From: Candidatus Accumulibacter conexus
Lineage (GTDB): Bacteria; Pseudomonadota; Gammaproteobacteria; Burkholderiales; Rhodocyclaceae
NCBI GenBank assembly: GCA_017592775.1
Contig: JAGFNJ010000016.1
Span: 22,789-86,788 of the forward strand
Direction: 5' to 3'
Length of the DNA stretch: 64,000 nucleotides
Shown: in pieces, positions 34,736 through 48,227 of the stretch
How the letters are laid out: every line of letters begins with the position of its first letter
Position numbering within the stretch: the first letter of the stretch is position 1
Notes under the pieces: generated by a model
Told to the model about the DNA's origin: nothing
What the model saw: only the letters and a program-made list of their open reading frames with translations
The model's database searches: none
Position numbers and translations under genes: made by a program

Positions 34736-35074
34736 ATGACTCCGGCGGAACAGGCACAGCTGCGCATCCTCAAGATCGTCGACGCCGAGCCGGCCATCAG
34801 CCAGCGACAGCTTGCCGAACGACTCGGGGTCAGCCTCGGCAAGGTCAACTATCTGCTCAGGGCGCTGCTGGACAAGGGCCACATCAAGGCCGGCAATTTC
34901 CTGCGCGCCGAGGACAAGTCGAAGTATGCCTACCTGCTCACGCCGGAAGGCATCAGTGCCAAGCTACACCTCACGCGCAACTACCTGGCGCGCAAGGAGC
35001 AGGAGTACCTGACCGTGAAGGCCGAGATCGACGCCATGCGCGCCGAACTGGGCGTTCACGAGGAGCGCCGCTGA
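34736..35074 (+). CDS. MarR-family EPS-associated transcriptional regulator
   Basis: A 112-residue winged-helix protein: AISQRQLAERLGVSLGKVNYLLRALLDKGHIKAGNF is the DNA-binding part (about 20-57), followed by a coiled tail (KEQEYLTVKAEIDAM). It matches the MarR-type family found next to exopolysaccharide loci in betaproteobacteria and other groups. It closes the intact part of the first polysaccharide block and probably regulates it. The 200 bases upstream hold no other gene. Confidence 0.85.
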   Translation: MTPAEQAQLRILKIVDAEPAISQRQLAERLGVSLGKVNYLLRALLDKGHIKAGNFLRAEDKSKYAYLLTPEGISAKLHLTRNYLARKEQEYLTVKAEIDAMRAELGVHEERR

Positions 35075-35614
35075 CCCGGTGGCCGGTTGCCGTCCTGGGA
35101 CGTCGGGACAGGAGTCGAAGGCGACCGCTCCCGGGCGGGTGAAAGGCGAAACGTGCTGAATGCTCTCGAGCATCCGGGCATGGCGGTAGCGTGCCTGCGG
35201 GCTATGGCGCAGGAAGCTGTCGTCGCCTGCCCCCCCCCAGCACATCCGGGCGATACGAGCGGTTGCCCGTCCGTTGGCGCGCAACCAGGCGCGCACCCGG
35301 TTCTTCGGTTCCCGGCTCGACGACACCGGACACACGCTGGTCGTCGTGGTTGAGCGCGACGCCTGGACATGAACAGGTTTGGCGCCATGTCGACCGGCCG
35401 GAGAAGCTAACGGCCCGGCCCGTCACGTGGCCCATTCGGTATAAGTGCACCGTATTGCTGGGGCATGCAGGCAAGGTTCCCGCGATCAATCCAGGTTCTC
35501 CCGTTGCCCCTGTTCAGGGACGTAGTTCCCATACCGTGTCCCCTGATCGACTTTCGGAATGCCGTGGTTGATGGTGTTCTCAGGAGAATCGAGCATGCTG
35601 TCTACTTGTCGCAG
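35075..35614. other. 540-base gap with dispersed repeats and no supported gene
   Basis: No convincing coding frame. It contains one copy of the GCATGGCGGTAGCGTGCC motif (35178-35195), a run of nine C residues near 35231, and a degenerate copy of the TATACT leader repeat (35521-35550) ahead of mntA. Composition and repeat content mark the left border of the accessory island. Confidence 0.6.
35521..35550 (+). repeat. TATACT leader repeat, copy 1 (degenerate)
   Basis: TTCCCATACCGTGTCCCC aligns with the island-wide leader repeat. It lies 65 bases upstream of mntA. Confidence 0.45.
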
Positions 35615-36049
35615 ATGACAACGACCGAATTGATTGGCTCGGTGCTGCTCCGCCACCCTCATGTCAAGCTGGCGGTACTGTTTGGCTCACTGGCAGCGGG
35701 TGCGGGTCGACCGGACAGCGACCTCGACCTGGCGGTGGCGGATGACAGGCCGTTGAGCGCCGATGCCAGGATGGCGTTGATCGCCGATCTTGCGGAGCAT
35801 GTAGGCCGGCCGGTTGATCTGATTGACCTGACTCGCACCGGCGAGCCGCTGCTCGGCCAAATCCTTGCGCATGGGCGCCGCATCCTGGGAAGCGATGAAC
35901 GCTACGCCGACTTGTTGCGCCGGCACCTTTTCGATGAGGCGGATTTCGCACCCTATCGCAGCCGCATATTGGCTGAACGGAGGCGGGCATGGATCGGCAG
36001 CCAGTCGAGCAGAAGCTCGAGTCCCTCCGCCGCTGTCTGCTCAGAGTGA
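35615..36049 (+). CDS. mntA: MntA-type nucleotidyltransferase antitoxin
   Basis: A 144-residue minimal nucleotidyltransferase. GS (24-25) and D36xD38 in the GSx10DxD motif are intact, with Pro-Val-Asp-Leu-Ile-Asp (VDLIDL) further on. In the MntA/HepT module the enzyme adds AMP to the HEPN toxin and so neutralises it. The start at ATG 35615 is chosen by family length; the upstream frame reads through a repeat. It overlaps the next gene by 61 bases. Its normal partner is truncated here. Confidence 0.85.
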   Translation: MTTTELIGSVLLRHPHVKLAVLFGSLAAGAGRPDSDLDLAVADDRPLSADARMALIADLAEHVGRPVDLIDLTRTGEPLLGQILAHGRRILGSDERYADLLRRHLFDEADFAPYRSRILAERRRAWIGSQSSRSSSPSAAVCSE

Positions 36050-36246
36050 CGGAAAAATGCCCGCTTGATGCGGCAAGCCTGGTGCGCGATGTTGACGCCC
36101 AGGACATCATCACGCTGAATCTGACCCGCGCCGTGCAAGTCTCCGTCGATCTGGCGGCCCACCTGATCGCCAGCCGCGACGTCCCCGCGCCAAACACCAT
36201 GGGGCAAAGCTTTGAAGCGCTCGCCCTCCGGGTGTACCCGCGATGA
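35989..36246 (+). pseudogene. hepT: Truncated HepT-like HEPN toxin
   Basis: 85 residues with the HepT N-terminal pattern (QKLESLRRCLLRV, DAQDIITLNLTRAVQVSVDLAAHLIA, PNTMGQSFEAL). Full-length HepT proteins have about 135-145 residues; the C-terminal half with the RNase motif Rx4-6H and the MntA-modified Tyr is missing, replaced by a short unrelated end (LRVYPR). No continuation is seen in other frames downstream. The toxin is therefore probably inactive. Confidence 0.8.
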
Positions 36247-36298
36247 AGCAAGAGGACGGCAAGCAGGGGGAGGGCGGCGTCAAGGTGCTCTTCTCTTG

Positions 36299-36328
36299 AG
36301 GAAATGCATATAGTGTCCCCCCTTTTCG
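36299..36328 (+). repeat. TATACT leader repeat, copy 2
   Basis: ATGCATATAGTGTCCCCC, four bases before the GTG start of the first Rpn-type gene. Confidence 0.55.
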
Positions 36329-36332
36329 CACG

Positions 36333-37340
36333 GTGAACCCGCTCCTCGAACCCGCCGTCGCCAACGACGACTACGACACTCCCTGGAAAGACGCCGTCAC
36401 GCGCTACTTTCCCGAGTTCATCGCGTTCTACTTTCCAGACGCGCATCGGCAGATCGACTGGAACCGCGGCTACACCTTCCTTGATCAGGAACTCGCCCAG
36501 ATCGTCAGAGATGCCGAACTCGGCAAGCGGCTTCTCGACAAACTCGTTCAGGTCGCCACCCACGACGGCGGCGAACGCTGGGTGTACGTCCACATCGAAG
36601 TGCAAGGTGGCCCGGAGGGTGACTTCGCCGAACGCCTCTTCACCTACAACTACCGTCTCTACGACAAATACCGGCGCCCCATCGCCAGCCTCGCCGTTCT
36701 TGCTGACGACCGTCCACACTGGAAGCCGCAAACCTATGGATATGAACTCTTCGGTTGCCGGCACTACCTCGAGTTTCCCACGGTAAAGCTGCTCGACTAC
36801 CAGCCGCAAGCCCAGTCCCTGCTGGTCGACCCCAACCCTTTCGCCCTGGTTACTGCCGCTCACCTGCTCACCCAGCAAACCAAGGGGGACGACGGGCAAA
36901 GGCTTGCTGCAAAATGGCGGCTGGCCAAACTGCTCTACGAACGCAACTGGGACAAGCAACGCATCATTGACCTGTTCAGCGTCATCGACTGGATGATGCA
37001 AGTGCCGAAAGACCTGCAGAATCAACTCTGGCAAGACATCGAACAACTGGAGAGGAACCGAGCCATGCCCTACATCACCTCGGTAGAACGTATCGGCATT
37101 GAGAAAGGCATGCAGCAAGGCATGCGGCAAGGCATGCAGCAAGGCATGCAGCAAGGCATGCAGCAAGGCATTCGGCAAGGGGAGTCTGCGCTCCTCGAAC
37201 GCCAACTCACCCGCCGCTTCGGCCCGCCCAGCGCGGAGACACTGGCTCGGCTGAACGCCGCCGCCGTTGAAGAACTGGAGCAATGGGCCGAGAACATCCT
37301 GGACGCCACGACGCTGGAAGAGGTTTTCAAGGAACACTGA
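36333..37340 (+). CDS. Rpn-family (PD-(D/E)XK) nuclease with DUF4351-like C terminus, copy 1
   Basis: A 335-residue protein of the recombination-promoting nuclease / putative transposase group. DDYDTPWKDAVTRYFPEF marks the N terminus; the nuclease core includes VHIEVQG (Glu-x-Gln). After a helical middle, the tail carries a 12-bp tandem repeat coding GMQQ/GMRQ units, then the QLTRRFGPPSAETLARLNAA...LDATTLEEVF end shared by all the family copies here. Known Rpn proteins cut DNA and can act against phage. Start is GTG 36333. It is about 70% alike by eye to the gene at 40971. An internal start lies at 37065. Confidence 0.85.
   Translation: MNPLLEPAVANDDYDTPWKDAVTRYFPEFIAFYFPDAHRQIDWNRGYTFLDQELAQIVRDAELGKRLLDKLVQVATHDGGERWVYVHIEVQGGPEGDFAERLFTYNYRLYDKYRRPIASLAVLADDRPHWKPQTYGYELFGCRHYLEFPTVKLLDYQPQAQSLLVDPNPFALVTAAHLLTQQTKGDDGQRLAAKWRLAKLLYERNWDKQRIIDLFSVIDWMMQVPKDLQNQLWQDIEQLERNRAMPYITSVERIGIEKGMQQGMRQGMQQGMQQGMQQGIRQGESALLERQLTRRFGPPSAETLARLNAAAVEELEQWAENILDATTLEEVFKEH
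37065..37340 (+). CDS. Candidate intragenic small product (RpnS-like) of Rpn copy 1
   Basis: In-frame ATG 37065 follows GGAGAGG at 37049-37055 with 9 bases spacing and would give a 91-residue protein with the repeat and C-terminal domain only (MPYITSVERIG...). In E. coli rpn genes, such internal products are antitoxins of the full-length nuclease. The sites are seen; use is inferred. Confidence 0.5.
   Translation: MPYITSVERIGIEKGMQQGMRQGMQQGMQQGMQQGIRQGESALLERQLTRRFGPPSAETLARLNAAAVEELEQWAENILDATTLEEVFKEH
37107..37180 (+). repeat. 12-bp tandem repeat inside Rpn copy 1
   Basis: About six units of GGCATGCAGCAA with small changes code for GMQQ. Unit length is a multiple of three, so gain or loss keeps the frame. 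Confidence 0.9.
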
Positions 37341-37420
37341 CCATCTGACGATCTGGACAGGCGGGGCCGGTTCCGGTTGTTGAGCACCCTTGTCTGTCGT
37401 AGGGTGCAATAAGCGGCGTG

Positions 37421-37667
37421 TACTTCGCCGGTGAAGACCGAGAGCGTGTGCAGTCCTTTCTGGCGAGGGTGACACGGGTCGGCATTGGCGCGCTAGCGAG
37501 AACTTGCCTGGTTTATCTGCTTGTTCGTCCAGGCATGGCGGGATGAACTGGGTTCGCTTGCGCGGGAACGTCAACGGCTTGGCGCGCCGCTCCAATTCTC
37601 GACCGCCCCCGCGACCTCGCGTCATGCCCGAAGTCAGCCGGGGTTGATGGGTGGGTCCTGCGCTGGA
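37421..37667 (+). repeat. Long leader repeat, left copy
   Basis: This stretch aligns over about 250 bases with 42096-42354, in the same orientation. Shared blocks include TTCGCCGGTGA, ACCG-GAGCG-GTG, CTGGCGAG-GTGACAC, CAGGCATGGCGG and GCGCTTGCGCGGGA-like segments. Both end in a TATACT repeat and then an accessory gene. No gene lies in it. Confidence 0.7.
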
Positions 37668-37697
37668 AGGTATTTCATCTACTGTCCCTTTGATTGT
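37668..37697 (+). repeat. TATACT leader repeat, copy 3
   Basis: TATTTCATCTACTGTCCCTT, 19 bases before the DUF29 gene. Confidence 0.75.
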
Positions 37698-37716
37698 GCA
37701 TTGTGGGGAGGTCGAT

Positions 37717-38154
37717 ATGAGCACCAGGTACGAAACCGATGTCGTGGCATGGGCAAACGAGCAGGCCAGCCTTCTTCGTGCCGGGCGGTTCGAACTGCTC
37801 GACCGCGACCACCTCGCGGAGGAAATCGAAGACGTGGGCAAGAGCGAGCAGCGCGAACTCGCGAGCCGGATGTCGGTTCTGATGGCTCATCTACTCACGT
37901 GGCGATATCAGCCGGAGCGGCGGGGAGCCAGTTGGGAAAAGATCATCCTCGCGCCGCGCAAGGAGATTGCCTATGGACTGAGTGACGCCCCAAGCCTCAC
38001 CGCCAAGCTCCAGGAAGCGCGATGGCTTGAGATGGTGTGGGCCAAGGCTGTTGCTCAGGCGGTTGGGGAAACCGGCCTTGATTGCTTTCCCGACGCCTGT
38101 CCGTGGGCGATGGAAGAAGAAGTCCTCAATGAGGGCTGGTTACCGGACGCCTGA
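37717..38154 (+). CDS. DUF29 family protein
   Basis: A 145-residue protein from ATG 37717 behind GGGGAG. The DUF29 pattern is clear: YETDVVAWANEQASLLRAGRF, LDRDHLAEEIEDVGKSEQRELASRMSVLMAHLLTWRYQPE and a C-terminal CPWAMEEEVLNEGWLP. DUF29 proteins are all-helical, often many per genome in cyanobacteria and Accumulibacter-like bacteria, with unknown function. The frame is open upstream through the leader repeat, which is not counted as coding. Confidence 0.88.
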   Translation: MSTRYETDVVAWANEQASLLRAGRFELLDRDHLAEEIEDVGKSEQRELASRMSVLMAHLLTWRYQPERRGASWEKIILAPRKEIAYGLSDAPSLTAKLQEARWLEMVWAKAVAQAVGETGLDCFPDACPWAMEEEVLNEGWLPDA

Positions 38155-38240
38155 AGACATTCATCGCGACCAGCCGATCCCCGACGCCGTCACGTCACCA
38201 GGCGGACAAAGGCTTGCGCCGTGCCACATACCCATCGCCC

Positions 38241-39239
38241 ATGGCTACCGACTCGACACCGGATACCGGCTACAAGCTGATCTTCTCGCACGCCGTCGTC
38301 GTCGAAGACCTGCTGCGCGGCTTTGTCGGCGAAGACTGGGTCGAAGATCTCGACTTCTCGACGCTCGAGAAGTCGGGGGGCAGTTACGTCACGGACGACC
38401 TTCGTGAACGCGAAGACGATGTGATCTGGCGGATTCGGCGGCGCGACGGCTGGCTGTACATCTACCTGCTGCTCGAATTCCAGAGTGCCGTCGACCCCTG
38501 GATGGCCCTCCGGATACTCGTCTATACCGGCCTGCTGTATCAGGACCTGATCCGCAAGGGCGAAGTGGGCCGTGGTGAGAAACTGCCGGCGGTTTTCCCG
38601 TTGGTCATCTACAATGGCCGTGAGCCGTGGGGTGCTGCGCGCGATGTCGGCGAGCTGATCGACGAACTCCCCGGCAGCCTGAAGTGCTATCGACCGATGA
38701 ACCGCTACTTTCTGCTCGAAGAAGCGAGCATCGACGAAGCTTGTCTGTCTGACGAGTCGAACACGGTCGGCGGCATCATCCGGATCGAGCAGAGTGGCGC
38801 GCCCGCCGACATCCGTCGAGCTGTCGCGCGGCTTCATCAGCGGCTGCAGGGTCCGCAGTACGACAGCCTGCGCCGGGCGCTGGTCGTATGGATCAACCGG
38901 GTCGTACTTCGCCGGCTGATGCCCGGCCAGGCGATCGCGGAAGTTAACGAACTACAGGAGATCGACACCATGCTGGCGGAAACGGTAGACAGCTGGGCAC
39001 GACAGTGGAAAGAAGACGGGCTGCGCGAAGGTCGCCTCGAAGGTCGCCTCGAAGGTCGCCTCGAAGGTCGCCTCGAAGGCGAGAGCACGTTGCTGCAGAA
39101 GCAGTTCGAGCGCCGTTTCGGGCCGCTACCGGACTGGGTGCACCAACGGCTCTTGGATGCGACGACCGAGCAACTGGAAGCGTGGGCGCTCGACATCCTC
39201 GACGCCGCCACGCTCGAGGATGTGTTCAGGGAAGATTGA
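38241..39239 (+). CDS. Rpn-family nuclease/transposase (YhgA-like), copy 2
   Basis: A 332-residue protein from ATG 38241. YKLIFSHAVVVEDLLRGFV and LEFQSAVDPWMALRILVYTGLLYQDLI are typical of the Rpn group, with the catalytic Glu-x-Gln in LLLEFQS and PLVIYNGREPW. The tail has a 12-bp repeat coding EGRL, then KQFERRFGPLPDWVHQRLLDATTEQLEAWALDILDAATLEDVF, the same C-terminal module as the other copies although the nuclease part is of a different subgroup. An internal start lies at 38970. It begins 86 bases after the DUF29 gene, with no leader repeat between. Confidence 0.88.
   Translation: MATDSTPDTGYKLIFSHAVVVEDLLRGFVGEDWVEDLDFSTLEKSGGSYVTDDLREREDDVIWRIRRRDGWLYIYLLLEFQSAVDPWMALRILVYTGLLYQDLIRKGEVGRGEKLPAVFPLVIYNGREPWGAARDVGELIDELPGSLKCYRPMNRYFLLEEASIDEACLSDESNTVGGIIRIEQSGAPADIRRAVARLHQRLQGPQYDSLRRALVVWINRVVLRRLMPGQAIAEVNELQEIDTMLAETVDSWARQWKEDGLREGRLEGRLEGRLEGRLEGESTLLQKQFERRFGPLPDWVHQRLLDATTEQLEAWALDILDAATLEDVFRED
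38970..39239 (+). CDS. Candidate intragenic small product of Rpn copy 2
   Basis: In-frame ATG 38970 is preceded by AGGAG (38956-38960) at 9 bases and gives 89 residues (MLAETVDSWARQ...) covering the repeat and C-terminal domain. Predicted as an antitoxin by analogy with E. coli rpn genes. Confidence 0.5.
   Translation: MLAETVDSWARQWKEDGLREGRLEGRLEGRLEGRLEGESTLLQKQFERRFGPLPDWVHQRLLDATTEQLEAWALDILDAATLEDVFRED
39027..39079 (+). repeat. 12-bp tandem repeat inside Rpn copy 2
   Basis: About 4.4 units of GAAGGTCGCCTC coding EGRL; near-perfect copies. Confidence 0.9.
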
Positions 39240-39998
39240 GCGGCGGCCCAGCCAGCAGCGAGTTGCATTGACCTTTCGCGCGCCCGGCGAACAACGTGGC
39301 GCCCTCATCAACCATCAAGACCGTGCCGAGTTCCGGGGTCTGCTCGGCTCCGCCCACCACTGGCTGGCCGTCCGCAGAATCGGGAACCAGATGGGCCGTG
39401 AAAGCAGCGCGCATCCGAAGCTGGTGCGCGACACCTTGCGGGCGGCGCATGGTGTCGTTCCCGTGCAAATCGCCATATTCGAGGGCCTGATCGGCGAAGC
39501 ACGAAAGGTGCCGCTGGGCTTGATGGTCCAGGCAGGCAATCGGCGCGGGCGCGCGAGTGGTCGTGGTCGCGTCCATCGTACGGCCCGCTTGCTGCCGCAG
39601 CGCGCGGCCCCTTGGCATTGCAGTGCAAGGCTGCGGCAACCGTGGAGCAATTCACATGCCATCGGCCCGGGCCCTGCGATCATCCGGGGCAGTCGCATGT
39701 CGGCGCGCTCGCCGTGCGGCCTGGCGTTGAACCATCGCGACCGACGATCGTCTGCGAGCGGCTGCTGCCCGCAAGGGCTGCGCGCTGCGAGCACTTGCGG
39801 AATGAACCGCGCCGTCACGGCCGCTGTGCTCGGAACGAACGACGAGCAGTCTGCTGAATGCCAGCGCATTCCGGCATGGCGGTAGCGTGCCCGCGCGCGC
39901 GCCGTCGGACGCCCGGTACGACCCCCGTCGGGCCGAGCCGGGAGACCGGCTGCCAATCGCCGGACTGCAACCCGCGGGCCGGATTCAACCCGCGGTAG
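39240..39998. other. Non-coding or decayed stretch with long repeat
   Basis: Open frames exist on both strands but none has recognisable family content. The part 39640-39960 is homologous in the same orientation to 45480-45790: shared blocks are GATCATCCGGG, CGCTCGCCGTGCGGC, TGCTGAATGCCA, and GCATGGCGGTAGCGTGCC (39874-39891). The rest (39240-39640) I cannot assign. Confidence 0.55.
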
Positions 39999-40290
39999 AC
40001 GCGATGCTCGCGACGCGGGTCAGCTTCATCAACGAACGCGCCAACCTCGCCCAAGCGACCCCAAACGAGTGCCATTTTGCTATCTGGGCACAGGCTTTCA
40101 GGCCGAACACCGAGGGCATGCGCGAAGCGCCGGGTCGGACGCTGCTCAACGAACTCTTCGCTGCCGGAGCGACCGCCACCGCCCGCGGCCCGGTCGCCAT
40201 GGAAGCGGCCCGGCGGGTCTTCCGCGACGAGGCGTCACCGATATACGTGACCCATCCGCAGACTGTGCTCGAAACGCTTGGTGCGCGGGC
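39999..40290 (+). pseudogene. Decayed UDP-glucose 6-dehydrogenase fragment
   Basis: AMLATRVSFINERANLAQA at the left and CHFAIWAQAFRPNTEGMREAPGRTLLNELF onwards at the right match two separate parts of the intact dehydrogenase at 46908 ([19 protein letters not shown], and [29 protein letters not shown]). About 250 bases between them, including the catalytic Cys, are missing. It runs into leader repeat copy 4. Confidence 0.8.
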
Positions 40291-40302
40291 TGGTCTCCGG
40301 AA

Positions 40303-40332
40303 TGAATTTCATATACTGTCACCTTTATTTAC
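40303..40332 (+). repeat. TATACT leader repeat, copy 4
   Basis: AATTTCATATACTGTCACC; it ends directly at the ATG of the next gene (40333). Confidence 0.75.
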
Positions 40333-40536
40333 ATGAGAACTGATGCAGAAATTCGCCATGAAGGTGTAGCGACGCTCATCAAAACCCTTGGCCCCGTCGA
40401 AGCCGAGCGATTTATCGCACTGATCAACCGGGAACGGCTTGATTACACCGAATGGCGCAGAAATCAATGGCTGGAAGAAACAGTTGCCTCCCTCGCCGAT
40501 AAGGCAAGAAAACTTCGTTCGGCAAGTAAGGAATGA
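40333..40536 (+). CDS. Small conserved protein of unknown function (paralog pair, first member)
   Basis: 67 residues: an N-terminal helix pattern IRHEGVATLIKTLGPVEAERFIALINRERLDYTEWRRNQWLEE and a basic tail (KARKLRSASKE). It shares ILxxLGxxEAxRFxxLxxR with the next gene, so the two are paralogs. Similar small proteins occur in pairs in cyanobacteria and proteobacteria, without known function. No helix-turn-helix or toxin motif is visible. Its stop overlaps an ATG of the next frame (ATGA at 40533). Confidence 0.6.
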   Translation: MRTDAEIRHEGVATLIKTLGPVEAERFIALINRERLDYTEWRRNQWLEETVASLADKARKLRSASKE

Positions 40537-40610
40537 ATCCTCAAGCCAATTTACGCGATGAGCCCGCTCGAATTCATTGCTCAAGAGGAACCATCAGTGG
40601 CGAAACACTG

Positions 40611-40796
40611 ATGACCGAAGAACGACTGATCCGTCAAGCGACCGATGTCTTGATCGAAAATCTGGGGATCATGGAGGCCACCCGCTTTTTCACCCTGAGC
40701 CGCGAAGGCCGTCCGGAGCCTGTGGAACGACACAGAGCATGGCAAGGAGATCTGGACAAGGAGGTGTTCTTTGCCGAGATTTTTGGGGCAGACTAA
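40611..40796 (+). CDS. Small conserved protein of unknown function (paralog pair, second member)
   Basis: 61 residues from ATG 40611 (MTEERLIRQATDVLIENLGIMEATRFFTLSREGR...), ending DKEVFFAEIFGAD. Paralog of the 67-residue protein just upstream. The frame is open back to ATG 40533, which overlaps the first gene's stop; the extra 26 residues look non-conserved, but that start would give translational coupling. The two genes make a plausible uncharacterised small-protein module. Confidence 0.6.
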   Translation: MTEERLIRQATDVLIENLGIMEATRFFTLSREGRPEPVERHRAWQGDLDKEVFFAEIFGAD

Positions 40797-40917
40797 AGGT
40801 CCAAGGTAGGCAAGAACGGAGGCCGGGAAGGGCGGCGCCAATGCGTTTCTGCTCTTGCGGGGACAAGGAGACTGTCCCCTTATCCCAGTGGAGGTTATCG
40901 AGTGGGCGCTTCTGGGA

Positions 40918-40947
40918 AGGTATTTCATATACTGTTTCTTTAATTGC
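40918..40947 (+). repeat. TATACT leader repeat, copy 5
   Basis: TATTTCATATACTGTTTC, 23 bases before the second long Rpn gene start. A partial extra block (ACTGTCCCCTTATCCC) lies at 40871-40886. Confidence 0.75.
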
Positions 40948-40970
40948 CCATCTCCGCCAAGCACAGACCG

Positions 40971-41951
40971 ATGGAAAAGCCGACCCTACCCAGCGACGAC
41001 TACGACACCCCGTGGAAAGACGCGTTGACGCGCTACTTCCCGGAGTTCATGGCCTTCTACTTCCCGCGAGCCCACGGCGAGATCGACTGGCAGCAGCCGC
41101 ACATTTTCCTCGAACAGGAACTCGCCCAGGTGGTGCAGGACGCGCAGCTCGGCAAGCGTCTGGTTGACTGCCTGGTGCAGGTCGCGACGCGGGACGGAGG
41201 TGAGCAATGGGTCTACATCCACGTCGAAGTCCAGGGCCAGCAGGATGCCGACTTTCCCGAGCGCCTGTTCACCTACAACTACCGCCTCTACGACCGCTAC
41301 CGTCGTCCGGTTGCCAGCCTGGCCGTACTGGCTGACGAACGCGAAAACTGGAAGCCGGACGGGTTTGGCTATCAACTGTTCGGCTGCGAGGTCGGCATCC
41401 GCTTTCCCGTGGTCAAGCTCCTCGACTATGCCAGCCAGACCGAATCCCTGCTTGAAGACCCCAACCCCTTCGCACTGGTCACCGCCGCCCACCTTCTTAC
41501 CCGGCGCACCAAGGGTGACCCGGAACAGCGCTATGCGGCAAAATGGCGGCTGGCCAAGCTGCTCTACGAACGCAATTGGGACAAGCAGCGCATCATCGAT
41601 CTGTTCGGGGTCATCGACTGGCTGATGCGGCTGCCGACAGATCTTGAGCAACGGCTGCTGCAGGAAGTCTACACACTGGAAAGGAAGGTCATCATGCCTT
41701 ACGTCACCTCTGCAGAACGCTTCGGAGTCGAGAAAGGCCGGCAGGAAGGCCGGCAGGAAGGCCGGCAGGAAGGCCGGCAGGAAGGCGAGGCTGCCCTCCT
41801 GAAGCGCCTGCTCGCGCGTCGCTTTGGCGCGCTCCCCGATGCGGTCCAGGTTCGGCTGACCACCGCCGATGTCGATCAACTGGAAGAATGGGCAATCAAG
41901 GTGCTCGATGCAGAGTCGCTGGACGAAGTCTTCGATCAGCGCCCACAGTAG
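40971..41951 (+). CDS. Rpn-family nuclease with DUF4351-like C terminus, copy 3
   Basis: A 326-residue close paralog of the gene at 36333 (same DDYDTPWKDALTRYFPEF, VHVEVQG, FTYNYRLYDRYRRPVASLAVLADE and AAKWRLAKLLYERNWDKQRIIDLF blocks). The tandem repeat at the same place has a different sequence and codes GRQE instead of GMQQ. C-terminal KRLLARRFGALPDAVQVRL...VLDAESLDEVF is the shared module. Start ATG 40971 fits the paralog; an in-frame ATG at 40944 lies inside the leader repeat. Confidence 0.85.
   Translation: MEKPTLPSDDYDTPWKDALTRYFPEFMAFYFPRAHGEIDWQQPHIFLEQELAQVVQDAQLGKRLVDCLVQVATRDGGEQWVYIHVEVQGQQDADFPERLFTYNYRLYDRYRRPVASLAVLADERENWKPDGFGYQLFGCEVGIRFPVVKLLDYASQTESLLEDPNPFALVTAAHLLTRRTKGDPEQRYAAKWRLAKLLYERNWDKQRIIDLFGVIDWLMRLPTDLEQRLLQEVYTLERKVIMPYVTSAERFGVEKGRQEGRQEGRQEGRQEGEAALLKRLLARRFGALPDAVQVRLTTADVDQLEEWAIKVLDAESLDEVFDQRPQ
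41694..41951 (+). CDS. Candidate intragenic small product of Rpn copy 3
   Basis: In-frame ATG 41694 follows AAGGAAGG (41681-41688) by 5 bases; 85 residues starting MPYVTSAERFG, the exact homolog of the internal start in copy 1. Confidence 0.5.
   Translation: MPYVTSAERFGVEKGRQEGRQEGRQEGRQEGEAALLKRLLARRFGALPDAVQVRLTTADVDQLEEWAIKVLDAESLDEVFDQRPQ
41735..41787 (+). repeat. 12-bp tandem repeat inside Rpn copy 3
   Basis: Four or more near-identical GGCCGGCAGGAA units coding GRQE. Confidence 0.9.
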
Positions 41952-42095
41952 CAAGTGGGCAGCACACCCCAACCGCTTGCGATGTCGCAGAACCACCCTC
42001 ACGACTGCGTCGTTGCCACTGGCGCGCCATACAGCGGTCGGCAGTTCGCCGTCCAGGTCGTCAAGTTCGCCGCCGCAAGACGGGGGCGCGCCCGT

Positions 42096-42354
42096 GTAGT
42101 TCGCCGGTGAGGACCGCGAGCGCGTGAATTCCTGGCTGGCGAGCGTGACACTGGTCGTCATCCCCGCACAGGCGAGAAGTTGCCTCGTCTGTCGGCTTGT
42201 TCTTTCAGGCATGGCGGTATGGAAACGGGTCATACGAAGTGTGTTGGCGCTTGCGCGGGAGTGAGGGCTTCGTGGCTCTGCCCCAATTGTTGACAGCGCG
42301 GATTCGCACCATGACCGAGGTCAGCTGAAGTTGGTGAGAAGGCTTTGCGCTGAA
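42096..42354 (+). repeat. Long leader repeat, right copy
   Basis: Diverged copy of 37421-37667 (see there). It fills most of the 446-base gap between the Rpn gene and the DUF4160 gene. Confidence 0.7.
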
Positions 42355-42384
42355 AGGAATTGCATGTGCTGTGCCGTTGATTGA
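42355..42384 (+). repeat. TATACT leader repeat, copy 6 (diverged)
   Basis: AATTGCATGTGCTGTGCCG, 13 bases before the DUF4160 start. Confidence 0.5.
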
Positions 42385-42397
42385 TGAGGAGTCAGTG

Positions 42398-42658
42398 ATG
42401 CCTGAGATAAGCCGCTTTCTCGGAATCATCATTGCCATGTACTACAATGAGCATAGTCCACCGCATTTTCATGCTCGCTATGGTGACGCCCAAGTGGAAA
42501 TCGGAATCGAGACCCTTTCCGTGCTGGCGGGAAAGTTGCCTCCCAGGGCCATTGGGTTGGTAATGGAATGGGCCAGTCGTCATCAGGAAGAACTCATGGT
42601 CGACTGGGAATTGGCCCGCCAACAGGCAGAGCTCAGGAAGATTGACCCACTGGAGTAA
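42398..42658 (+). CDS. DUF4160 protein, pair 1
   Basis: 86 residues from ATG 42398 (MPEISRFLGIIIAMYYNEHSPPHFHARYG...). HSPPHFHARYGDAQVEIGIETLSVLAGKLPPRAIGLVMEWA is the DUF4160 core with the conserved Pro-His-Phe/Ile-His. DUF4160 genes regularly stand directly before a DUF2442 gene and the pair has been proposed to be a toxin-antitoxin-like module; biochemistry is lacking. Same architecture as the pair at 44182-44692. Confidence 0.88.
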   Translation: MPEISRFLGIIIAMYYNEHSPPHFHARYGDAQVEIGIETLSVLAGKLPPRAIGLVMEWASRHQEELMVDWELARQQAELRKIDPLE

Positions 42659-42661
42659 ACC

Positions 42662-42946
42662 ATGTTCATGATCGACATCATCGATGTTCAGCCTCTGCAC
42701 GCAAGGCATCTTGAACTGACCTTTGCTGACGGCTTGCACGGTGTGGTCAACCTGGACCAAGTGATAGGGCAATACACCGGTGTATTTTCGCCGCTACTTG
42801 ATGACAGCTACTTTCACCAGGTCACTCTCAACCATGAGCTGGGAACGGTCGTCTGGCCAAACGGCGCAGATCTTTGTCCTGATGTGCTTTATTCGCATGT
42901 CTCTGGAAAGCCGATCACAGTGCATGGAGTTCGCGTGCTCAATTGA
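42662..42946 (+). CDS. DUF2442 protein, pair 1
   Basis: 94 residues. DVQPLHARHLELTFADGLHGVVNL, FSPLLDDSYFHQVTLNHELGTVVWPNGADLCPDVLY are typical for DUF2442. It starts 3 bases after the DUF4160 stop (ATG 42662; ATG 42668 also possible). DUF2442 has a small alpha/beta fold; often the second gene of this pair. Confidence 0.88.
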   Translation: MFMIDIIDVQPLHARHLELTFADGLHGVVNLDQVIGQYTGVFSPLLDDSYFHQVTLNHELGTVVWPNGADLCPDVLYSHVSGKPITVHGVRVLN

Positions 42947-43054
42947 TGGCAAGTCCTCTATCTCACAGCCCTTGCCCGTCAATCCCAATTCTCATGCTGG
43001 AAGACGGTACGACCCTTCACGACGCCTTTCCCGACAGGAGATTCAAGCCATGAT

Positions 43055-43215
43055 GTCTTGTCCGAGAGCCGGATGCGCGAGAAGCGCCTGTCCGGTTCGA
43101 TGAGCGGGATGTGGAAACGGGGTTACGGCAAGGCTACTTGGGCACCGTCAGACGAAAGGGACGGAAACAGACAAGCCGAACCTATCGCCACCGCGCCACA
43201 TCTCGACTCTACCCT
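43055..43215 (+). mobile_element. Probable 3' remnant of a group II intron
   Basis: GAGCCGGA (43065-43072) pairs with TCCGGTTC (43090-43097), enclosing a second short stem GCGC/GCGC. This is the look of group II intron domain V. The sequence after it (GAAACGGG, then a stretch whose frame reads [21 protein letters not shown]) resembles flanks of degraded intron copies. No reverse transcriptase is present. Only the hairpin is directly visible; the identity is inferred. Confidence 0.5.
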
Positions 43216-43244
43216 GTTGGCCTTATCAGTGAAGGCGGATTGCC

Positions 43245-43502
43245 ATGCAAAGCACCATTGAAATAGAGTGCCCACGGGAAATCTTGTTGGGTTTGCACCT
43301 GGACGCAGACCAATTTGCCGAATTGGTCAAGGAGGAAGCCGCGATGGCCTTGTTTCGCGAGGGTCGCTTGTCGTCTGGCATGGCAGCAAACTGGCTTGGC
43401 ATTCCGCGCGCCCATTTCCTCTTGAAAGCGATGCAGACAGGTGGCGCAAACCTGTTGGAAGACAACGATGACGACTTTCTCAGAGAGATTTCCTTGCTGT
43501 GA
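43245..43502 (+). CDS. UPF0175 family antitoxin-like protein
   Basis: 85 residues. [55 protein letters not shown] is the UPF0175 pattern: ribbon-like start, then a helix-turn-helix with [14 protein letters not shown]. Such proteins are putative antitoxins for the DUF3368 PIN-like toxin encoded next. Its TGA overlaps the GTG start of the toxin (GTGA). Confidence 0.88.
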
Positions 43503-43987
43503 TCGTTTTTTCCAATACCACGCCGTTTATTGCACTCGCCAGCATCGGCCAGTTGCATCTCTTGCCGCAGTTGTTCGGCACGGTGCACGTTGCAGAATCG
43601 GTCATCGGCGAATGCGCTGACGGCGGACGAATAGTTGTTCCCGCTTTGAGATCACTGGATTGGGTCATCCCCGTAGTAGATGAAGCGACATCGGGATTAC
43701 CCGTCCTCCTCGAACTGGATCGCGGAGAAAAGCAAACCATCATCCTGGCGAGGAAGTGCGCCGCGCACAGAGTGATCATCGACGAGCGCCTGGGCCGCCG
43801 CATCGCCGAGTATCTTGGGCTTAACGTGACAGGCACGCTCGGTGTGCTTGCCAAAGCCAAGTCGGCTGGCCTGATCCCGTCATTCCATGAAGCCGCGCAA
43901 GCGATGCGACAACAAGGCATCCACTACAATGCAGGGCTGATCAGTCGGGTTGCCCTGCACTTGGGCGAGGACCCCGGATCGAACTGA
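43499..43987 (+). CDS. DUF3368 PIN-domain toxin-like nuclease
   Basis: 162 residues from GTG 43499. VFSNTTPFIALASIGQLHLLPQLFGTVHVAESVIGE at the N terminus, LDRGEKQTIILARKCAAHRVIIDERLGRRIAEYLGLNVTGTLGVLAKAKSAGLIPS in the middle: a PIN fold with the acidic residues Glu/Asp kept (GE, DER). It pairs with UPF0175 as a type II toxin-antitoxin-like module. Expected activity is RNA cleavage; not shown for this group. Confidence 0.88.
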   Translation: MIVFSNTTPFIALASIGQLHLLPQLFGTVHVAESVIGECADGGRIVVPALRSLDWVIPVVDEATSGLPVLLELDRGEKQTIILARKCAAHRVIIDERLGRRIAEYLGLNVTGTLGVLAKAKSAGLIPSFHEAAQAMRQQGIHYNAGLISRVALHLGEDPGSN

Positions 43988-44110
43988 ATGACCCGGTGCC
44001 CCCTTTTGTTGGCGCACTGCATGCAGGCCGCTGTCCGCTGCTGCTGTATCGATTTTCCAACCGCTTTCAACAGGGCAGAATCACTCGCACCCTTGAGACG
44101 AGTCCAGCGA

Positions 44111-44171
44111 GGGTATTTCATATACTGTCCCCTTTATTCGTCCCCTTTATTCGTGGTCCCTTTTATTCGCG
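44111..44171 (+). repeat. TATACT leader repeat, copy 7, with tandem end
   Basis: TATTTCATATACTGTCCCC followed by three tandem versions of TCCCCTTTATTCG. It ends 10 bases before the second DUF4160 gene. This is the most regular copy. Confidence 0.8.
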
Positions 44172-44181
44172 GTAGACTCCC

Positions 44182-44451
44182 ATGCCTATACTGTCAGTCT
44201 TCTTCGGCATCATCGTTCGTATGTGGCATGATGACCATCCGCCGCCCCATATTCACGTCGAGTACCAGGGATTCGAGGCTTTTGTCGAAATTCGAACGGG
44301 CGAGATCAGCGAAGGGCGGCTACCAAGGAAAGCTGCGGCCCTCGTCAAGGAATGGTGCCTGCGGCATCAAGATGAGTTGATGACGAACTGGGAGCGCGCG
44401 CAGAGATTTGAATCGTTGCAACGTATAGCTGGAGCAGACCACGATGATTAA
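44182..44451 (+). CDS. DUF4160 protein, pair 2
   Basis: 89 residues, MPILSVFFGIIVRMWHDDHPPPHIHVEYQGFEAFVEIRTGEISEGRLPRKAAALVKEWC..., with the PPHIHVEY core. It differs strongly from pair 1, so this is not a recent copy. Its last codons overlap the DUF2442 start (44444). Confidence 0.88.
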   Translation: MPILSVFFGIIVRMWHDDHPPPHIHVEYQGFEAFVEIRTGEISEGRLPRKAAALVKEWCLRHQDELMTNWERAQRFESLQRIAGADHDD

Positions 44452-44692
44452 GGTGATTACGGCACGCTATCTTGGCAACTATCAAGTTGCACTTGTCTTC
44501 TCTGACAACAAAGAAGGGGTTTTTGACGGTACACGTTTGTTACAACGCCACGGAACGCTGATAGAAGCGCTGCGCGATGAGAACTTCTTCAAGCTCCTGT
44601 TTGTCGATATGGGCGCTTTATGCTGGCCGAACGGCCTGGAGCTCTCGCCGGCACGACTGTATGAGAACTGCAACATGACTGCAGTGGCCTGA
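44444..44692 (+). CDS. DUF2442 protein, pair 2
   Basis: 82 residues with LGNYQVALVFSDNKEGVFD and MGALCWPNGLELSPARLYE. It overlaps the DUF4160 stop by 8 bases, so the pair is translationally coupled. Function as for pair 1: proposed toxin-antitoxin-like, unproven. Confidence 0.87.
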   Translation: MIKVITARYLGNYQVALVFSDNKEGVFDGTRLLQRHGTLIEALRDENFFKLLFVDMGALCWPNGLELSPARLYENCNMTAVA

Positions 44693-44699
44693 GGCCTCG

Positions 44700-44940
44700 G
44701 ACAAGGCCAACCAAGGCGCGGTCCATGTCGTTCTGCAGCGTGATGTATTCGAGCGTCACGCGATTTCCCAACCCCTCGTGTTGCGTTGGCTGGTGTGGCA
44801 GTTGCTCGGCAGCGCGGCGGGAACCTTCAGTATCAACAAATTCCAAATCGACCTGAAATCTCAAGGCATTGCTGTCGGCAAGGACACCCTGCACAGCTAC
44901 CTGAGCCATCTGGATGGCCACGAAGAACGTAACCGTTCAC
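44700..44940 (+). pseudogene. Fragment of an AAA-type ATPase (DUF4143 family)
   Basis: The forward frame reads VVLQRDVFERHAISQPLVLRWLVWQLLGSAAGTFSINKFQIDLKSQGIAVGKDTLHSYLSHL, the middle part of the ATP-binding protein/DUF4143 family. No Walker motifs and no C-terminal domain; it ends in unrelated sequence. About 80 of some 400 residues remain. Confidence 0.7.
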
Positions 44941-45141
44941 TCCCCCCCACGCCGATTGGCCGCCAGACCCCGCGACAATGCACGATGCCGTCATAGCGGG
45001 GAGCCAAGCGACGCGGCAATTCAGCCGACAACTTCCCGGATCGCCACGCCCCTCCGGGGCTCGCGATGCCGAGAAACGGTGACGGTATGCTTTTCTTTCC
45101 TGGAAGGTCCGCTGCGGCGACCTCTACGGATGCCGTGCTGC

Positions 45142-45301
45142 CCTCTCGGGGCTGGCCATACAAGCTGAACAGCGACGACCTGCGCGAAGCGCCGAGCCGG
45201 ACGCTGCTCGCCGACCTCTTCGCCGCGGTCGCGACCGCGACCACGTACGACCCCGTCGCCATGGAAACGGCCCGGCGCGTCTGCGGCGAGAGGGGGGACT
45301 G
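45142..45301 (+). pseudogene. Second decayed UDP-glucose 6-dehydrogenase fragment
   Basis: [48 protein letters not shown] is nearly identical to residues around 325-370 of the intact enzyme at 46908. It stops at a TGA (45299-45301). The downstream piece up to about 45355 resembles the end of the fragment at 39999-40290. Confidence 0.82.
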
Positions 45302-45362
45302 AGCACCGTGAGCAATCCGCGGACTGCGCTCGAAGGGCTTGGTGAGTCGGCTGGTCTCTGGA

Positions 45363-45392
45363 AGGTATTTCCCATACTGTCACTTAAATTAG
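45363..45392 (+). repeat. TATACT leader repeat, copy 8
   Basis: TATTTCCCATACTGTCACTT. Unlike the others it has no gene directly after it. Confidence 0.65.
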
Positions 45393-45877
45393 ACCGGGCG
45401 ATCGCGGTCGCGCCCATCGTACGGCAACCACTCGCTGCCTCAGTGCGCGGCCACCTCGGATTACTGTGCAAGGCAATAGACCGTGAAACAATTCACACCC
45501 GGCCGGTCCGGGGGGTGCGATCATCCGGGCCAGTCGCAGCGCGGAGCGCTCGCCGTGCGGCTTGATGTTGACCAGCCGCGACCGATGATCATGCGCGAGC
45601 GGCAGTGGCGCTCAAGGGCAGGGCGCTGCGAGCGCCCGCACGAATGGGCCGGGCTGTCATGGGGCCGCTGGGGACGGAACGAAGGGCGACCAGTCTGCTG
45701 AATGCCAATGCATTCGGGCATGGCGGTAGCGTGCCTGAGCGCGCGCAGGCGGACGCCGAATACGATCCCCACCTGCTCAAGCCGCAAGAACCGGCAGGCC
45801 GCGACCGCTGCTCGGACCGCACGGATCCGCAGAACCACCATCGCTGATCGCCGTCTTCCACCTGTGAGGTCCTTGAC
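45393..45877. other. 485-base gap with long repeat, no gene
   Basis: 45480-45790 is the partner of the repeat at 39640-39960 and includes GCATGGCGGTAGCGTGCC at 45718-45735. Nothing coding is supported. The last 40 bases lead into the epimerase gene. Confidence 0.55.
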
Positions 45878-46885
45878 TTGAAAATCCTGGTTACCGGCGC
45901 TGCCGGCTTCATCGGCATGCACACCGCGCTCAGCCTGCTGCGCCGCGGCGACAGCGTCGTCGGCATCGACAACCTCAACGACTATTACGACGTCCGCCTC
46001 AAGCACGACCGCCTGCAGCAGCTTGCCGGGCAGGGGGACTTCCGCTTCGAGCGCCTCGACCTCGCCGACCGAGCGGCGATGGCCGCGCTCTTCGCCCGCC
46101 AAGGCTTTGATCGCGTCATCCACCTCGCCGCTCAGGCCGGAGTCCGCTACTCGCTCGTCAATCCGGAGGCCTACGTCGACAGCAACCTCAGTGGCTTCCT
46201 CTCCGTCCTCGAAGGCTGCCGCCACCACGGAGTCGAGCACCTCGTCTACGCCTCGAGTTCGAGCGTGTACGGCGGCAACACGCGCATGCCGTTCTCGGAG
46301 CGGGACAACGTCGACCACCCGGTCAGCCTCTACGCGGCGACCAAGAAGGCCAACGAACTGATGGCCCACACCTACAGTCATCTCTATCGGCTGCCGACCA
46401 CCGGCCTGCGCTTCTTCACCGTTTACGGACCCTGGGGCCGGCCCGACATGGCCGCCTTTTTGTTCACCAGCGCGATCCTCGAAGGCCGGCCGATCGATGT
46501 CTTCAACCACGGCCAGATGCAGCGCGACTTCACCTACATCGACGACATCGTCGCCGCCGTCGTCCGGGTTTGCGATCGGCTGCCCACCGGCGACCAGGGC
46601 TTCGATTCCGGACAGCCCGACCCGGCGAGCAGCAGTGCACCCTACCGCGTCTTCAACATCGGCAATCACCAGCCCGTCGCACTCACCGAGTTCATCGGCT
46701 GCCTCGAGCGGCAGCTCGGCCGCGCCGCCGAAAGGCGGCTACTGCCGATGCAATCCGGCGACGTCCCGGCCACGTATGCCGACACCGCGGCGCTCGCCCA
46801 ATGGATCGGCTTCGCGCCGGCCACACCGCTCGCCGACGGCGTGGCGCGCTTCGTTCGGTGGTACCGTGACTACTACCGCATCTGA
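45878..46885 (+). CDS. NAD-dependent sugar epimerase (UDP-glucuronate 4-epimerase type), copy 1
   Basis: 335 residues from TTG 45878 with a GAGG site upstream. GAAGFIGMH is the NAD loop; Ser-Ser-Ser-Val-Tyr and Y152AATK156 carry the catalytic residues; [18 protein letters not shown] is typical of UDP-glucuronate/galacturonate epimerases. It lies 22 bases before a UDP-glucose dehydrogenase, so the pair would turn UDP-glucose into UDP-glucuronate and UDP-galacturonate. The paralog at 60720 is of equal length but carries a stop codon. Confidence 0.9.
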   Translation: MKILVTGAAGFIGMHTALSLLRRGDSVVGIDNLNDYYDVRLKHDRLQQLAGQGDFRFERLDLADRAAMAALFARQGFDRVIHLAAQAGVRYSLVNPEAYVDSNLSGFLSVLEGCRHHGVEHLVYASSSSVYGGNTRMPFSERDNVDHPVSLYAATKKANELMAHTYSHLYRLPTTGLRFFTVYGPWGRPDMAAFLFTSAILEGRPIDVFNHGQMQRDFTYIDDIVAAVVRVCDRLPTGDQGFDSGQPDPASSSAPYRVFNIGNHQPVALTEFIGCLERQLGRAAERRLLPMQSGDVPATYADTAALAQWIGFAPATPLADGVARFVRWYRDYYRI

Positions 46886-46907
46886 CCCCCTGAAGTAAGG
46901 AGTTCCC

Positions 46908-48227
46908 TTGAAAGTAACCGTCATCGGCACCGGCTACGTCGGTCTGGTCAGCGGCGCCTGCCTCGCCGAGGTCGGCAACGATGTCCTCTGCCTCGACGTC
47001 GATCCCGAGAAAATCCGCATCCTCGAAGCCGGCGGCATCCCGATCCATGAACCCGGCCTGCAGGAGATGGTCCGGCAAAATGTCGCCGCCGGGCGCCTGC
47101 ACTTCAGCACCGACGTCGAGCGCTCGGTACACCACGGCACAATCCAGTTCATCGCCGTCGGCACCCCGCCCGACGAAGACGGCTCCGCCGACCTGCAGTA
47201 CGTCCTCGCCGCCGCACGCAGCATCGGCCGGGTGATGACCGACTACAAGGTCGTCGTCGACAAGAGCACCGTACCTGTCGGCACCGGCGACGCCGTCCAT
47301 GCCGCAGTCGCCGAAGAACTCAGTGAGCGCGGGCTCGACATCCCGTACAGCGTCGTCTCCAATCCCGAGTTTCTCAAGGAAGGCGCCGCCGTCGAAGACT
47401 TCATGCGCCCCGACCGGATCGTCGTCGGTGCGTCGAGTGACCAGGCGATCCACCTGATGCGCGCGCTCTACGCGCCGTTCCAGCGCAACCACGAACGGCT
47501 GATCGTCACCAACCTGCGCAGCGCCGAACTGATCAAGTACGCGGCGAATGCAATGCTCGCGACGCGGATCAGTTTCATGAACGAACTCGCCAACCTCGCC
47601 GAAGCACTCGGTGCCGACATCGAGATGGTCCGCCGTGGAATCGGTGCGGATCCGCGAATCGGCTATCAGTTCCTCTACCCTGGCTGTGGCTATGGCGGGT
47701 CGTGTTTTCCGAAAGACGTCAAGGCGCTGATCCAAAGTGCGCGCAGCGCAGCGGGGATTGACCTGCGCGTCCTGCGCGCCGTCGAGGAAGCCAACGACGC
47801 CCAGAAGCACGTCCTCGCCACGAAACTCAAGGCACGCTTCGGCGACCTCAACGGGCGCCATTTCGCCGTCTGGGGACTGGCTTTCAAGCCGAACACCGAC
47901 GACCTGCGCGAAGCGCCGAGCCGGACGTTGCTTGCCGACCTCTTCGCCGCGGGCGCGACCGCCACCGCCTACGACCCGGTCGCCATGGACGAGGCTAGGC
48001 GGATCTTCGGCAACGAGGCGCGACTGAGCTGCGCGAGCAGTCCGCTCGCTGCGCTCGACGGCGCCGACGCGCTGGTCATCGTCACCGAGTGGAAGGAATT
48101 CCGCAGCCCGGACTTCGACGCGATCAGGCAAAGACTTCGGCACCCCGTGATCGTTGACGGGCGGAACCTCTTCGATCCGGAGCTGGTGCGCGCGCAGGGA
48201 ATCGAGTACTTCGCCATTGGGCGGTGA
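46908..48227 (+). CDS. ugd: UDP-glucose 6-dehydrogenase, copy 1
   Basis: 439 residues from TTG 46908 behind [25 protein letters not shown] binds NAD; the catalytic Cys266 is in [35 protein letters not shown] and the C-terminal [13 protein letters not shown] region are standard. It oxidises UDP-glucose to UDP-glucuronate. Second copy at 61746 and two fragments at 39999 and 45142 belong to the same gene family. Confidence 0.95.

What the first reader, a model, noticed from the sequence alone, without database searches (positions are those of the whole stretch)
35521..45392. A repeated TATACT leader stands directly before unrelated accessory genes
Eight copies of a roughly 30-nt sequence with the core TTTCATATACTGTCCC occur at 35521, 36299, 37668, 40303, 40918, 42355, 44111 and 45363, all on the plus strand. 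Seven end 0-65 bases before a start codon: mntA, two Rpn genes, DUF29, the 67-aa gene and two DUF4160 genes. The genes are unrelated, so the element travels with position, not family. TATACT fits a -10 box. It could be a shared promoter, a cassette boundary used for recombination, or a REP-like element. This is the best candidate for an undescribed cassette system.
Basis: seen in the sequence. Interest (0 to 1): 0.75.

Follow-up and report, generated by a model that had tools for sequence, protein, structure and literature searches.

The report
Mobile-element ends punctuating toxin-antitoxin genes
The repeated "leader" before these unrelated genes is not a promoter but the end-piece of a known kind of small jumping element (RAYT/TIRYT type), and in several Accumulibacter species the toxin-antitoxin and nuclease genes at this spot have been reshuffled, with breaks often at the edge of that end-piece.

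Summary
The repeat is real: 7 of 8 copies hold (not 35521). It is the right end of RAYT/TIRYT elements: Y1 (HUH) transposase genes flanked by terminal inverted repeats. The core flanks both sides of a RAYT gene in 5 of 6 Accumulibacter loci and in a genome of another order; the 6 of 28 genus genomes with that RAYT carry 15-44 cores, the other 22 carry 0-7. A left end at 45073 makes 45073-45390 a complete 318-bp non-autonomous element carrying a ugd fragment. In seven Accumulibacter genomes the ends form one-directional arrays among Rpn, MNT-HepT, UPF0175-DUF3368, DUF4160-DUF2442 and DUF29 genes; five share the left chromosomal border closely. Gene order differs between species and breakpoints favour the repeat edge (63 of 457 right ends, 6.5 expected; 51 of 107 long blocks start at an edge, 3.8 expected). 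So "cassette boundary" holds as a description and "REP-like" in kind; "promoter" has no support; an integron attC is contradicted by sequence. Not shown: that the transposase moves the genes. The window genome lacks this RAYT, and long blocks seldom end at the repeat (11 of 116), so recombination between repeats remains a live rival.

The parts
36300..36326 (+). right-end repeat (tail class F), 6 nt before the GTG of an Rpn-like/DUF4351 ORF
   Evidence: ORF coordinates
37669..37695 (+). right-end repeat (tail class B) before DUF29
40303..40329 (+). right-end repeat (tail class A, ugd-derived tail, no left end found) before the 67-aa gene
40870..40884 (+). partial 3'-terminal piece of the repeat (GACTGTCCCCTTATC)
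   Evidence: read from the sequence
40919..40945 (+). right-end repeat (tail class K) before an Rpn-like/DUF4351 gene
42356..42382 (+). decayed right-end repeat (tail class B) before DUF4160; not among the 50 cores used for statistics
   Evidence: in register with 37669 behind the same tail
44112..44138 (+). right-end repeat (tail class C), exact consensus, before DUF4160
44139..44169 (+). short tandem copies of the repeat's 3' end
45073..45390 (+). complete non-autonomous element: left end 45073-45099, fragment of ugd, right end 45364-45390
   Evidence: ten more left-right pairs in the other arrays (G014 7, G003 2, G022 1)
37417..37668 (+). class B tail upstream of the repeat
42093..42355 (+). 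class B tail, second copy
40055..40302 (+). class A tail: remnant of ugd (40055-40272 matches 47842-48058)
35615..36049 (+). MNT-type nucleotidyltransferase gene
   Evidence: PF18765 1e-16
35989..36246 (+). HepT-like gene, shortened here; longer copies in G014 and G016
   Evidence: PF01934 1.3e-4, below its cut-off
36333..37340 (+). Rpn-like gene (DUF4351 C-terminus)
   Evidence: PF14261 7.1e-11; PF04754 below its cut-off
37717..38154 (+). DUF29 gene
   Evidence: PF01724 4.9e-42
38241..39239 (+). Rpn gene (PF04754 + DUF4351)
   Evidence: PF04754 3.4e-22
40971..41951 (+). Rpn-like gene (DUF4351 C-terminus)
   Evidence: PF14261 9.1e-11; PF04754 below its cut-off
42398..42946 (+). DUF4160-DUF2442 pair
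43245..43987 (+). UPF0175-DUF3368 pair
44182..44692 (+). DUF4160-DUF2442 pair
34736..35074 (+). MarR-like regulator gene, conserved left border of the array
45878..48227 (+). epimerase and ugd genes, right border in the window; ugd is the source of the class A tail

Best explanation
The 'leader' is the right terminal repeat of RAYT/TIRYT-type mobile elements: small elements with inverted terminal repeats (outer edge about AATnnGGKGACAGTATA), normally associated with a Y1 HUH transposase of the REP-associated tyrosine transposase family. Shown: right ends, some left ends and complete non-autonomous units are scattered through a toxin-antitoxin/Rpn gene hot spot that in the window lies between a MarR-like gene and the epimerase-ugd genes; in different species gene modules often begin at the outer edge of these ends, and shared tails stop at it. 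Inferred: nicking and joining at the ends by the RAYT (present now or in the past), together with recombination between copies, inserts, duplicates and reorders the modules. That makes the repeat sit directly before unrelated genes. It is not needed as a promoter.
For: RAYT link: 6 full-length RAYT loci in the genus (76-100% identity) in G003, G013, G014, G022, G024, G027; the core flanks both sides in 5 and the right side only in 1. Those six genomes carry 21, 15, 32, 44, 35 and 23 cores at up to 2 mismatches; the other 22 of 28 carry 0-7, in G000, G016 and G020 mostly in the array (6 of 7, 4 of 5, 5 of 7); the reversed-pattern control gave 4 hits in all 28. Of 58 PF01797 matches listed, 30 loci were fetched; 3 are of this RAYT type and none of the other 27 has the core on both sides. 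NF047646 scores 80.2, 77.7, 82.8 against cut-off 80. A 57%-identical RAYT in a genome of another order has the same ends on both sides. Right border: 185 pairs with the same tail but different right side are about 65% alike upstream of the core (about 30% in unrelated pairs) and fall to about 25% at +27. Breakpoints: 63 of 457 distinct right ends of homology at +14..+32 from a core start, 6.5 expected, 0/2000; 42 of 454 left ends at +14..+45, 11.4 expected, 0/2000. Long cross-species blocks: 51 of 107 left ends at a repeat edge, 3.8 expected, 0/2000. Complete elements: 11 left-right pairs of 280-318 bp. Another end-to-end element lies between two conserved genes in G024; 6 of 11 compared genomes have only a spacer of about 100 bp there.
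Against: The window genome (G000), G016 and G020 have arrays but no RAYT above 41% identity (G000 is in 102 contigs, so a missing piece cannot be excluded), yet G000 and G016 differ in module order. Right ends of long cross-species blocks sit at the repeat in only 11 of 116 (2.5 expected; 17 of 2000 shifts reach it), and only 7 blocks have both borders at an edge. Pairs with the same right side but different tails (33) show only weak likeness just after the core in an ungapped comparison. A control window upstream of the core also has some excess of right ends (19, 10.5 expected, 39 of 2000 shifts). No clean target-site duplication or precise empty site was found for an array module; at the locus the other 5 of 11 genomes have longer, different spacers, some with core-like pieces. 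Most right ends have no recognisable left end (18 left-end-like sites for 50 cores). Rpn-like sequences stand beside the MarR-like gene in species without any core, so the hot spot does not depend on the repeat. Copies of the class A end are confined to the array contigs but for one, as local duplication would also give. Only 24 of 50 array and 32 of 49 dispersed cores match GGGGWSAS exactly; GGTGACAG is the next form, 11 and 12.
Confidence: 0.72

Rival explanations
1. Passive: the repeats are leftover ends of RAYT elements, and the modules are shuffled by the cell's own recombination or template switching between repeats, perhaps helped by the Rpn nucleases that lie in the array.
For: Arrays differ between G000 and G016 although neither has the RAYT. 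Crossing over inside a shared 20-27 nt core would give the same junction pattern as (reasoning). Local segmental copies exist: left ends at 8727 and 9339, and at 11252 and 17730, of the oriented G014 array share their 20-nt left flanks. Rpn (YhgA-like) proteins are linked to RecA-independent transfer (title and start of abstract of PMC5350276 in the listing).
Against: The same left-end-led segment meets different left flanks within 2 nt of the left end in G014 and G016, and an end-to-end element stands at another locus; both call for end-specific activity at some time.
Confidence: 0.4
2. Shared promoter or regulatory leader: TATACT is a -10 box that expresses each inserted gene.
For: 23 of 50 cores have a start codon within 70 nt (9.3 expected); in the arrays orientation is always with the cores' following genes on the plus strand.
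Against: -35-like hexamer in 4 of 50 cores against 1068 of 7000 random positions; no core among promoter-like sites; elsewhere the same core faces both ways; the breakpoint pattern is unexplained.
Confidence: 0.08
3. Integron-type cassette array: the repeat is an attC site used by an integron integrase.
For: One-directional cassette-like array of TA genes; the genome has three integron-integrase genes over the TIGR02249 cut-off.
Against: GTTRRRY in 0 of 50 junctions (38 of 2800 random stretches); no common hairpin seen by eye in 17 folded array cores; the three integrase hits lie on contigs C12, C1 and C68, the array on C11.
Confidence: 0.02

Closest known systems
TIRYT / TIRtrons (terminal-inverted-repeat-associated tyrosine transposases; PMC3733652, passages read)
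   Same: Y1 HUH transposase gene flanked by inverted repeats, some with the motif GGGGWSAS; repeats also occur as dimers and clusters; the paper reports two such genes in A. phosphatis.
   Different: The paper says A. phosphatis has no TIR repeats; here six genus members have 15-44 copies, ends punctuate accessory-gene arrays, and one element carries a gene fragment.
RAYT group 1 / TnpA_REP subclass 2.1 (PMC6006769, passages read)
   Same: Described there as the probable home of TIRYTs; no REP-like structure near the gene.
   Different: The C-terminal helix-turn-helix domains described there were not found by Pfam at E 0.1 in three proteins.
REP/REPIN/BIME repeats (PMC8266576, passages; PMC3116915, listing only)
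   Same: Repeats tied to a RAYT; inverted core pairs about 95 bp apart also occur here (coordinates).
   Different: No GTAG foot and no common hairpin.
Integron gene-cassette arrays (general knowledge; listings)
   Same: One-directional array of small accessory genes; modules differ at a short shared site next to the gene.
   Different: No attC, no integrase on the contig; modules often truncated; right borders of long blocks mostly not at the site.

Membership tests
TIRYT element ends | Y1/HUH transposase of the RAYT family associated with the repeat | tested here: met
   PF01797 in 3 of 3 and NF047646 over cut-off in 2 of 3 proteins; such a gene in 6 of 28 genus genomes, not found in the window genome
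TIRYT element ends | transposase gene flanked on both sides by the inverted repeat | tested here: met
   5 of 6 genus loci both sides, 1 right side only; plus one genome of another order
TIRYT element ends | GGGGWSAS motif in the terminal repeat (shared by some TIRs in the source paper) | tested here: met
   exact in 24 of 50 array and 32 of 49 dispersed cores; GGTGACAG form in 11 and 12
TIRYT element ends | mobility of the repeat caused by the transposase | not testable with these tools
   needs biochemistry or excision assays
TnpA_REP subclass 2.1 | C-terminal helix-turn-helix domain | tested here: not met
   Pfam at E 0.1 gave only Y1_Tnp for 3 proteins; I do not file the transposase in this subclass
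GTAG-type REP | GTAG tetranucleotide next to a palindrome | tested here: not met
   GTAG or CTAC within -40..+32 in 3 of 50 array cores; no common fold by eye
Integron cassette array | attC core GTTRRRY at the junction | tested here: not met
   0 of 50
Integron cassette array | integron integrase next to the array | tested here: not met
   three integrase hits over cut-off, all on other contigs
sigma-70 promoter | -35 hexamer at proper spacing from TATACT | tested here: not met
   4 of 50, less than at random positions; none of the cores

The most novel reading that the evidence does not exclude
A HUH (Y1) transposase-driven gene-cassette platform: the RAYT recognises right-end repeats in front of toxin-antitoxin and Rpn modules and inserts, duplicates and reorders such modules at existing repeat edges on single-stranded DNA, an integron analogue built on a different enzyme.
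Probability: 0.22. Interest if true: 0.82.

Novelty: new variant of a known kind. Interest (0 to 1): 0.55.

Why it matters
RAYTs are common, yet how they and their repeats spread is poorly understood (said so in the abstract of PMC8266576, listing). Here ends of a RAYT/TIRYT family mark borders along which toxin-antitoxin and Rpn genes differ between related species, and one non-autonomous element carries a piece of a host gene. If the enzyme does this, it adds a way besides integrons and IS elements to build islands of toxin-antitoxin and antiphage genes, and seven comparable arrays make it testable. If not, it is still a clear case in which a puzzling 'shared leader' is explained as element ends.

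Tried and rejected
Promoter: rejected. attC/integron: rejected on sequence. GTAG REP: rejected. Rfam at gathering threshold: only a tRNA elsewhere in the window. One-ended transposition with no left ends: held, dropped when left ends appeared. Pairing or direct likeness between the inner and outer flank of the core: no clear signal in 49 dispersed and 50 array copies (66 to 250 of 500 shuffles reach the observed value). Tails as remnants of RAYT genes: no tblastn match of 7 RAYT frames to the seven arrays. Insertion of a repeat into hepT: what first looked like a target duplication turned out to be a shortened hepT in the window against longer copies in G014 and G016. Cargo-bearing elements elsewhere: two 1.7-1.9 kb stretches between outward-facing cores in G024 hold what look by eye like ordinary chromosomal genes, so they are not evidence for cargo. 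Precise empty site: the flanks of the 1.4-kb query matched at separate places in the other genomes listed; one search gave a clean element but spacers of differing sequence. Two archaeal MAG hits of a 19-mer are at chance level by my estimate for 257 billion bases and were dropped. Stutter (short tandem copies of the repeat's 3' end): 17 of 49 dispersed and 6 of 50 array copies against 249 of 5107 control positions; it fits repeated nicking at the edge, but slippage explains it too. Single hits outside the genus (9 of the 10 other genomes) are near chance: the reversed-pattern control also hit 3 of 300.
Full report
What is there. Between a MarR-like gene (34736-35074) and the epimerase-ugd genes (45878-48227) stand three Rpn or Rpn-like/DUF4351 genes, an MNT-HepT pair with a shortened HepT, DUF29, two DUF4160-DUF2442 pairs and a UPF0175-DUF3368 pair, punctuated by seven copies of a ~27-nt repeat. 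An eighth copy proposed at 35521 does not hold.

Where else it is. In six further genomes of the genus (G003, G014, G016, G020, G022, G024) the repeat forms arrays in one orientation, with 3, 17, 4, 5, 7 and 8 cores found by likeness to the consensus; with 6 in the window that is 50 cores in seven arrays. The left border including the MarR-like gene matches the window in G003, G014, G016 and G024 at 91-96% identity; in G022 the MarR-like gene (78% identical protein) lies 4.6 kb before the first core. In G020 no MarR-like gene was found by the search, so its position is inferred from shared gene modules only.

What moves. Tail sequences upstream of the repeat fall into classes; class A (18 copies) is followed by 15 different right-flank groups. 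For 185 pairs with the same tail and different right side, identity is about 0.65 upstream of the core (about 0.3 in pairs that share neither side) and falls to 0.25 at +27; the core itself, to +26, is shared by all. For 33 pairs with the same right side and different tails the likeness after the core is weak in this ungapped comparison. In BLAST blocks between and within arrays, 63 of 457 distinct right ends lie at +14..+32 from a core start (6.5 expected) and 42 of 454 left ends at +14..+45 (11.4 expected), neither reached in 2000 shifts; 41 and 37 of 50 cores have one. A control window upstream gave 19 (10.5 expected, 39 of 2000) and 9 (10.8 expected). Among 116 cross-species blocks of >=250 bp and >=88% identity, 51 of 107 left ends sit at a right-end or left-end edge (3.8 expected, 0/2000), but only 11 of 116 right ends (2.5 expected, 17/2000); 7 have both. 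So the clear rule is that gene modules start at the repeat edge. No two of the seven arrays have the same whole gene order, though G022 and G024 share a stretch of it.

What the repeat is. Y1 transposase loci of the genus were compared: 30 fetched of 58 PF01797 matches listed. One RAYT type (MARxARVVAAGYPHHVTQRGNRR...) is flanked by the core in inverted orientation: of 6 full-length loci 5 on both sides and one on the right only; none of the 27 fetched loci of other types has it on both sides. The protein shows HVH and YIENNP motifs (read), PF01797 and NF047646. All six genomes with this RAYT have 15-44 cores; G007, with a 46% relative, has 5; the remaining 21 have 0-7. Outside the genus the repeat is sporadic: 10 of 299 genomes of the order other than G000 at one mismatch, 9 of them as single hits near chance, and 9 of 368 of the class other than G000 with no mismatch and no control hit. 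One of the latter, of another order, has a 57%-identical RAYT with the same ends on both sides. The ends fit the GGGGWSAS motif of TIRYT elements described in PMC3733652 (passages); PMC6006769 (passages) places most TIRYTs in subclass 2.1, whose C-terminal domain I did not find in three proteins, so I do not assign the subclass.

Complete elements. Left ends (GAAACGGTGACAGTATACTTTTCTTGC, up to 9 mismatches of 27 with up to 3 in the core) occur 18 times in the seven arrays and 0 times in the reversed sequence. Eleven left-right pairs span 280-318 bp; the one in the window, 45073-45390, carries a fragment of ugd (45104-45336 matches 47829-48061). Matches that include the class A right end lie in the array contigs except one, 90% identical over 84 nt, at another locus in G027. 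In G014 and G016 the same left-end-led segment, 96% identical over 500 bp, meets different left flanks within 2 nt of the left end. In G003 and G024 a left end stands directly before the first Rpn-like gene (in G024 after a run of N). In G024 an end-to-end element fills the spacer between two conserved genes where G020, G010, G018, G026, G021 and G001 have a spacer of about 100 bp without it; G000, G014, G016, G022 and G027 have longer, different spacers, some with core-like pieces.

How it most likely works. Shown: element ends, edges as breakpoints, gene modules starting at the edge. Inferred: RAYT-made nicks and joins at the ends created many of the junctions, and recombination between copies reshuffled them. 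Which of the two does most is open, because three genomes with arrays lack the RAYT. The cargo is of the kind linked to antiphage defence or addiction: Rpn proteins are reported as toxin-antitoxin and antiphage systems (start of abstract of PMC10327210 in the listing); that the MNT-HepT, UPF0175-DUF3368 and DUF4160-DUF2442 pairs are toxin-antitoxin systems I take from general knowledge and the listing.

Novelty. The repeat class is known. The listings for RAYT or TIRYT with REPIN/IS200, cassette, cargo and toxin-antitoxin terms (20 of 2,499 papers shown; 13 of 13; 2 of 2; 10 of 53) showed no title or abstract start on RAYT ends bordering accessory-gene arrays; I read passages of four papers only, and most subscription papers are not in that library. 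Hence 'new variant of a known kind'.

Noticed in passing
window 45877-48223 and 60719-63061: Two full epimerase-ugd gene pairs (75.7% identical DNA) plus ugd remnants at about 40001-40272 and 45104-45336.
   Followed up: partly
window 35989-36246: HepT-like gene is shortened here while G014 and G016 have longer copies in the same module.
   Followed up: partly
window 37095-37180, 39015-39079, 41724-41785: 12-nt tandem repeats inside each of the three Rpn or Rpn-like genes.
   Followed up: no
window 51905-52261: Strong IS200-type Y1 transposase gene (PF01797 1.5e-35) about 6.5 kb right of the array, with no core in its fetched locus.
   Followed up: partly
own genome G000 contigs C12, C1, C68: Three integron-integrase genes over the TIGR02249 cut-off.
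   Followed up: no
L098 (G013:C55:3500-9800): RAYT elements alternate with a CopG/PIN-like pair and a UPF0175-DUF3368-like pair (named by eye), the same layout as in the window with the transposase present.
   Followed up: partly
L213 (G359:C28): Tandem copies of the same terminal repeat, many about 34 nt apart in one direction; 51 exact pattern matches in a 1.6-Mb genome.
   Followed up: no
L131, L133, L134, L135: Rpn-like DNA (about 69-80% identical) near the MarR-like gene in G025, G011, G017 and G006, which have no core at up to two mismatches; the hot spot does not depend on the repeat.
   Followed up: partly
L008 (G027:C2): A right end with many short tandem copies of its 3' edge beside a leucine-rich-repeat-like gene (named by eye).
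   Followed up: no
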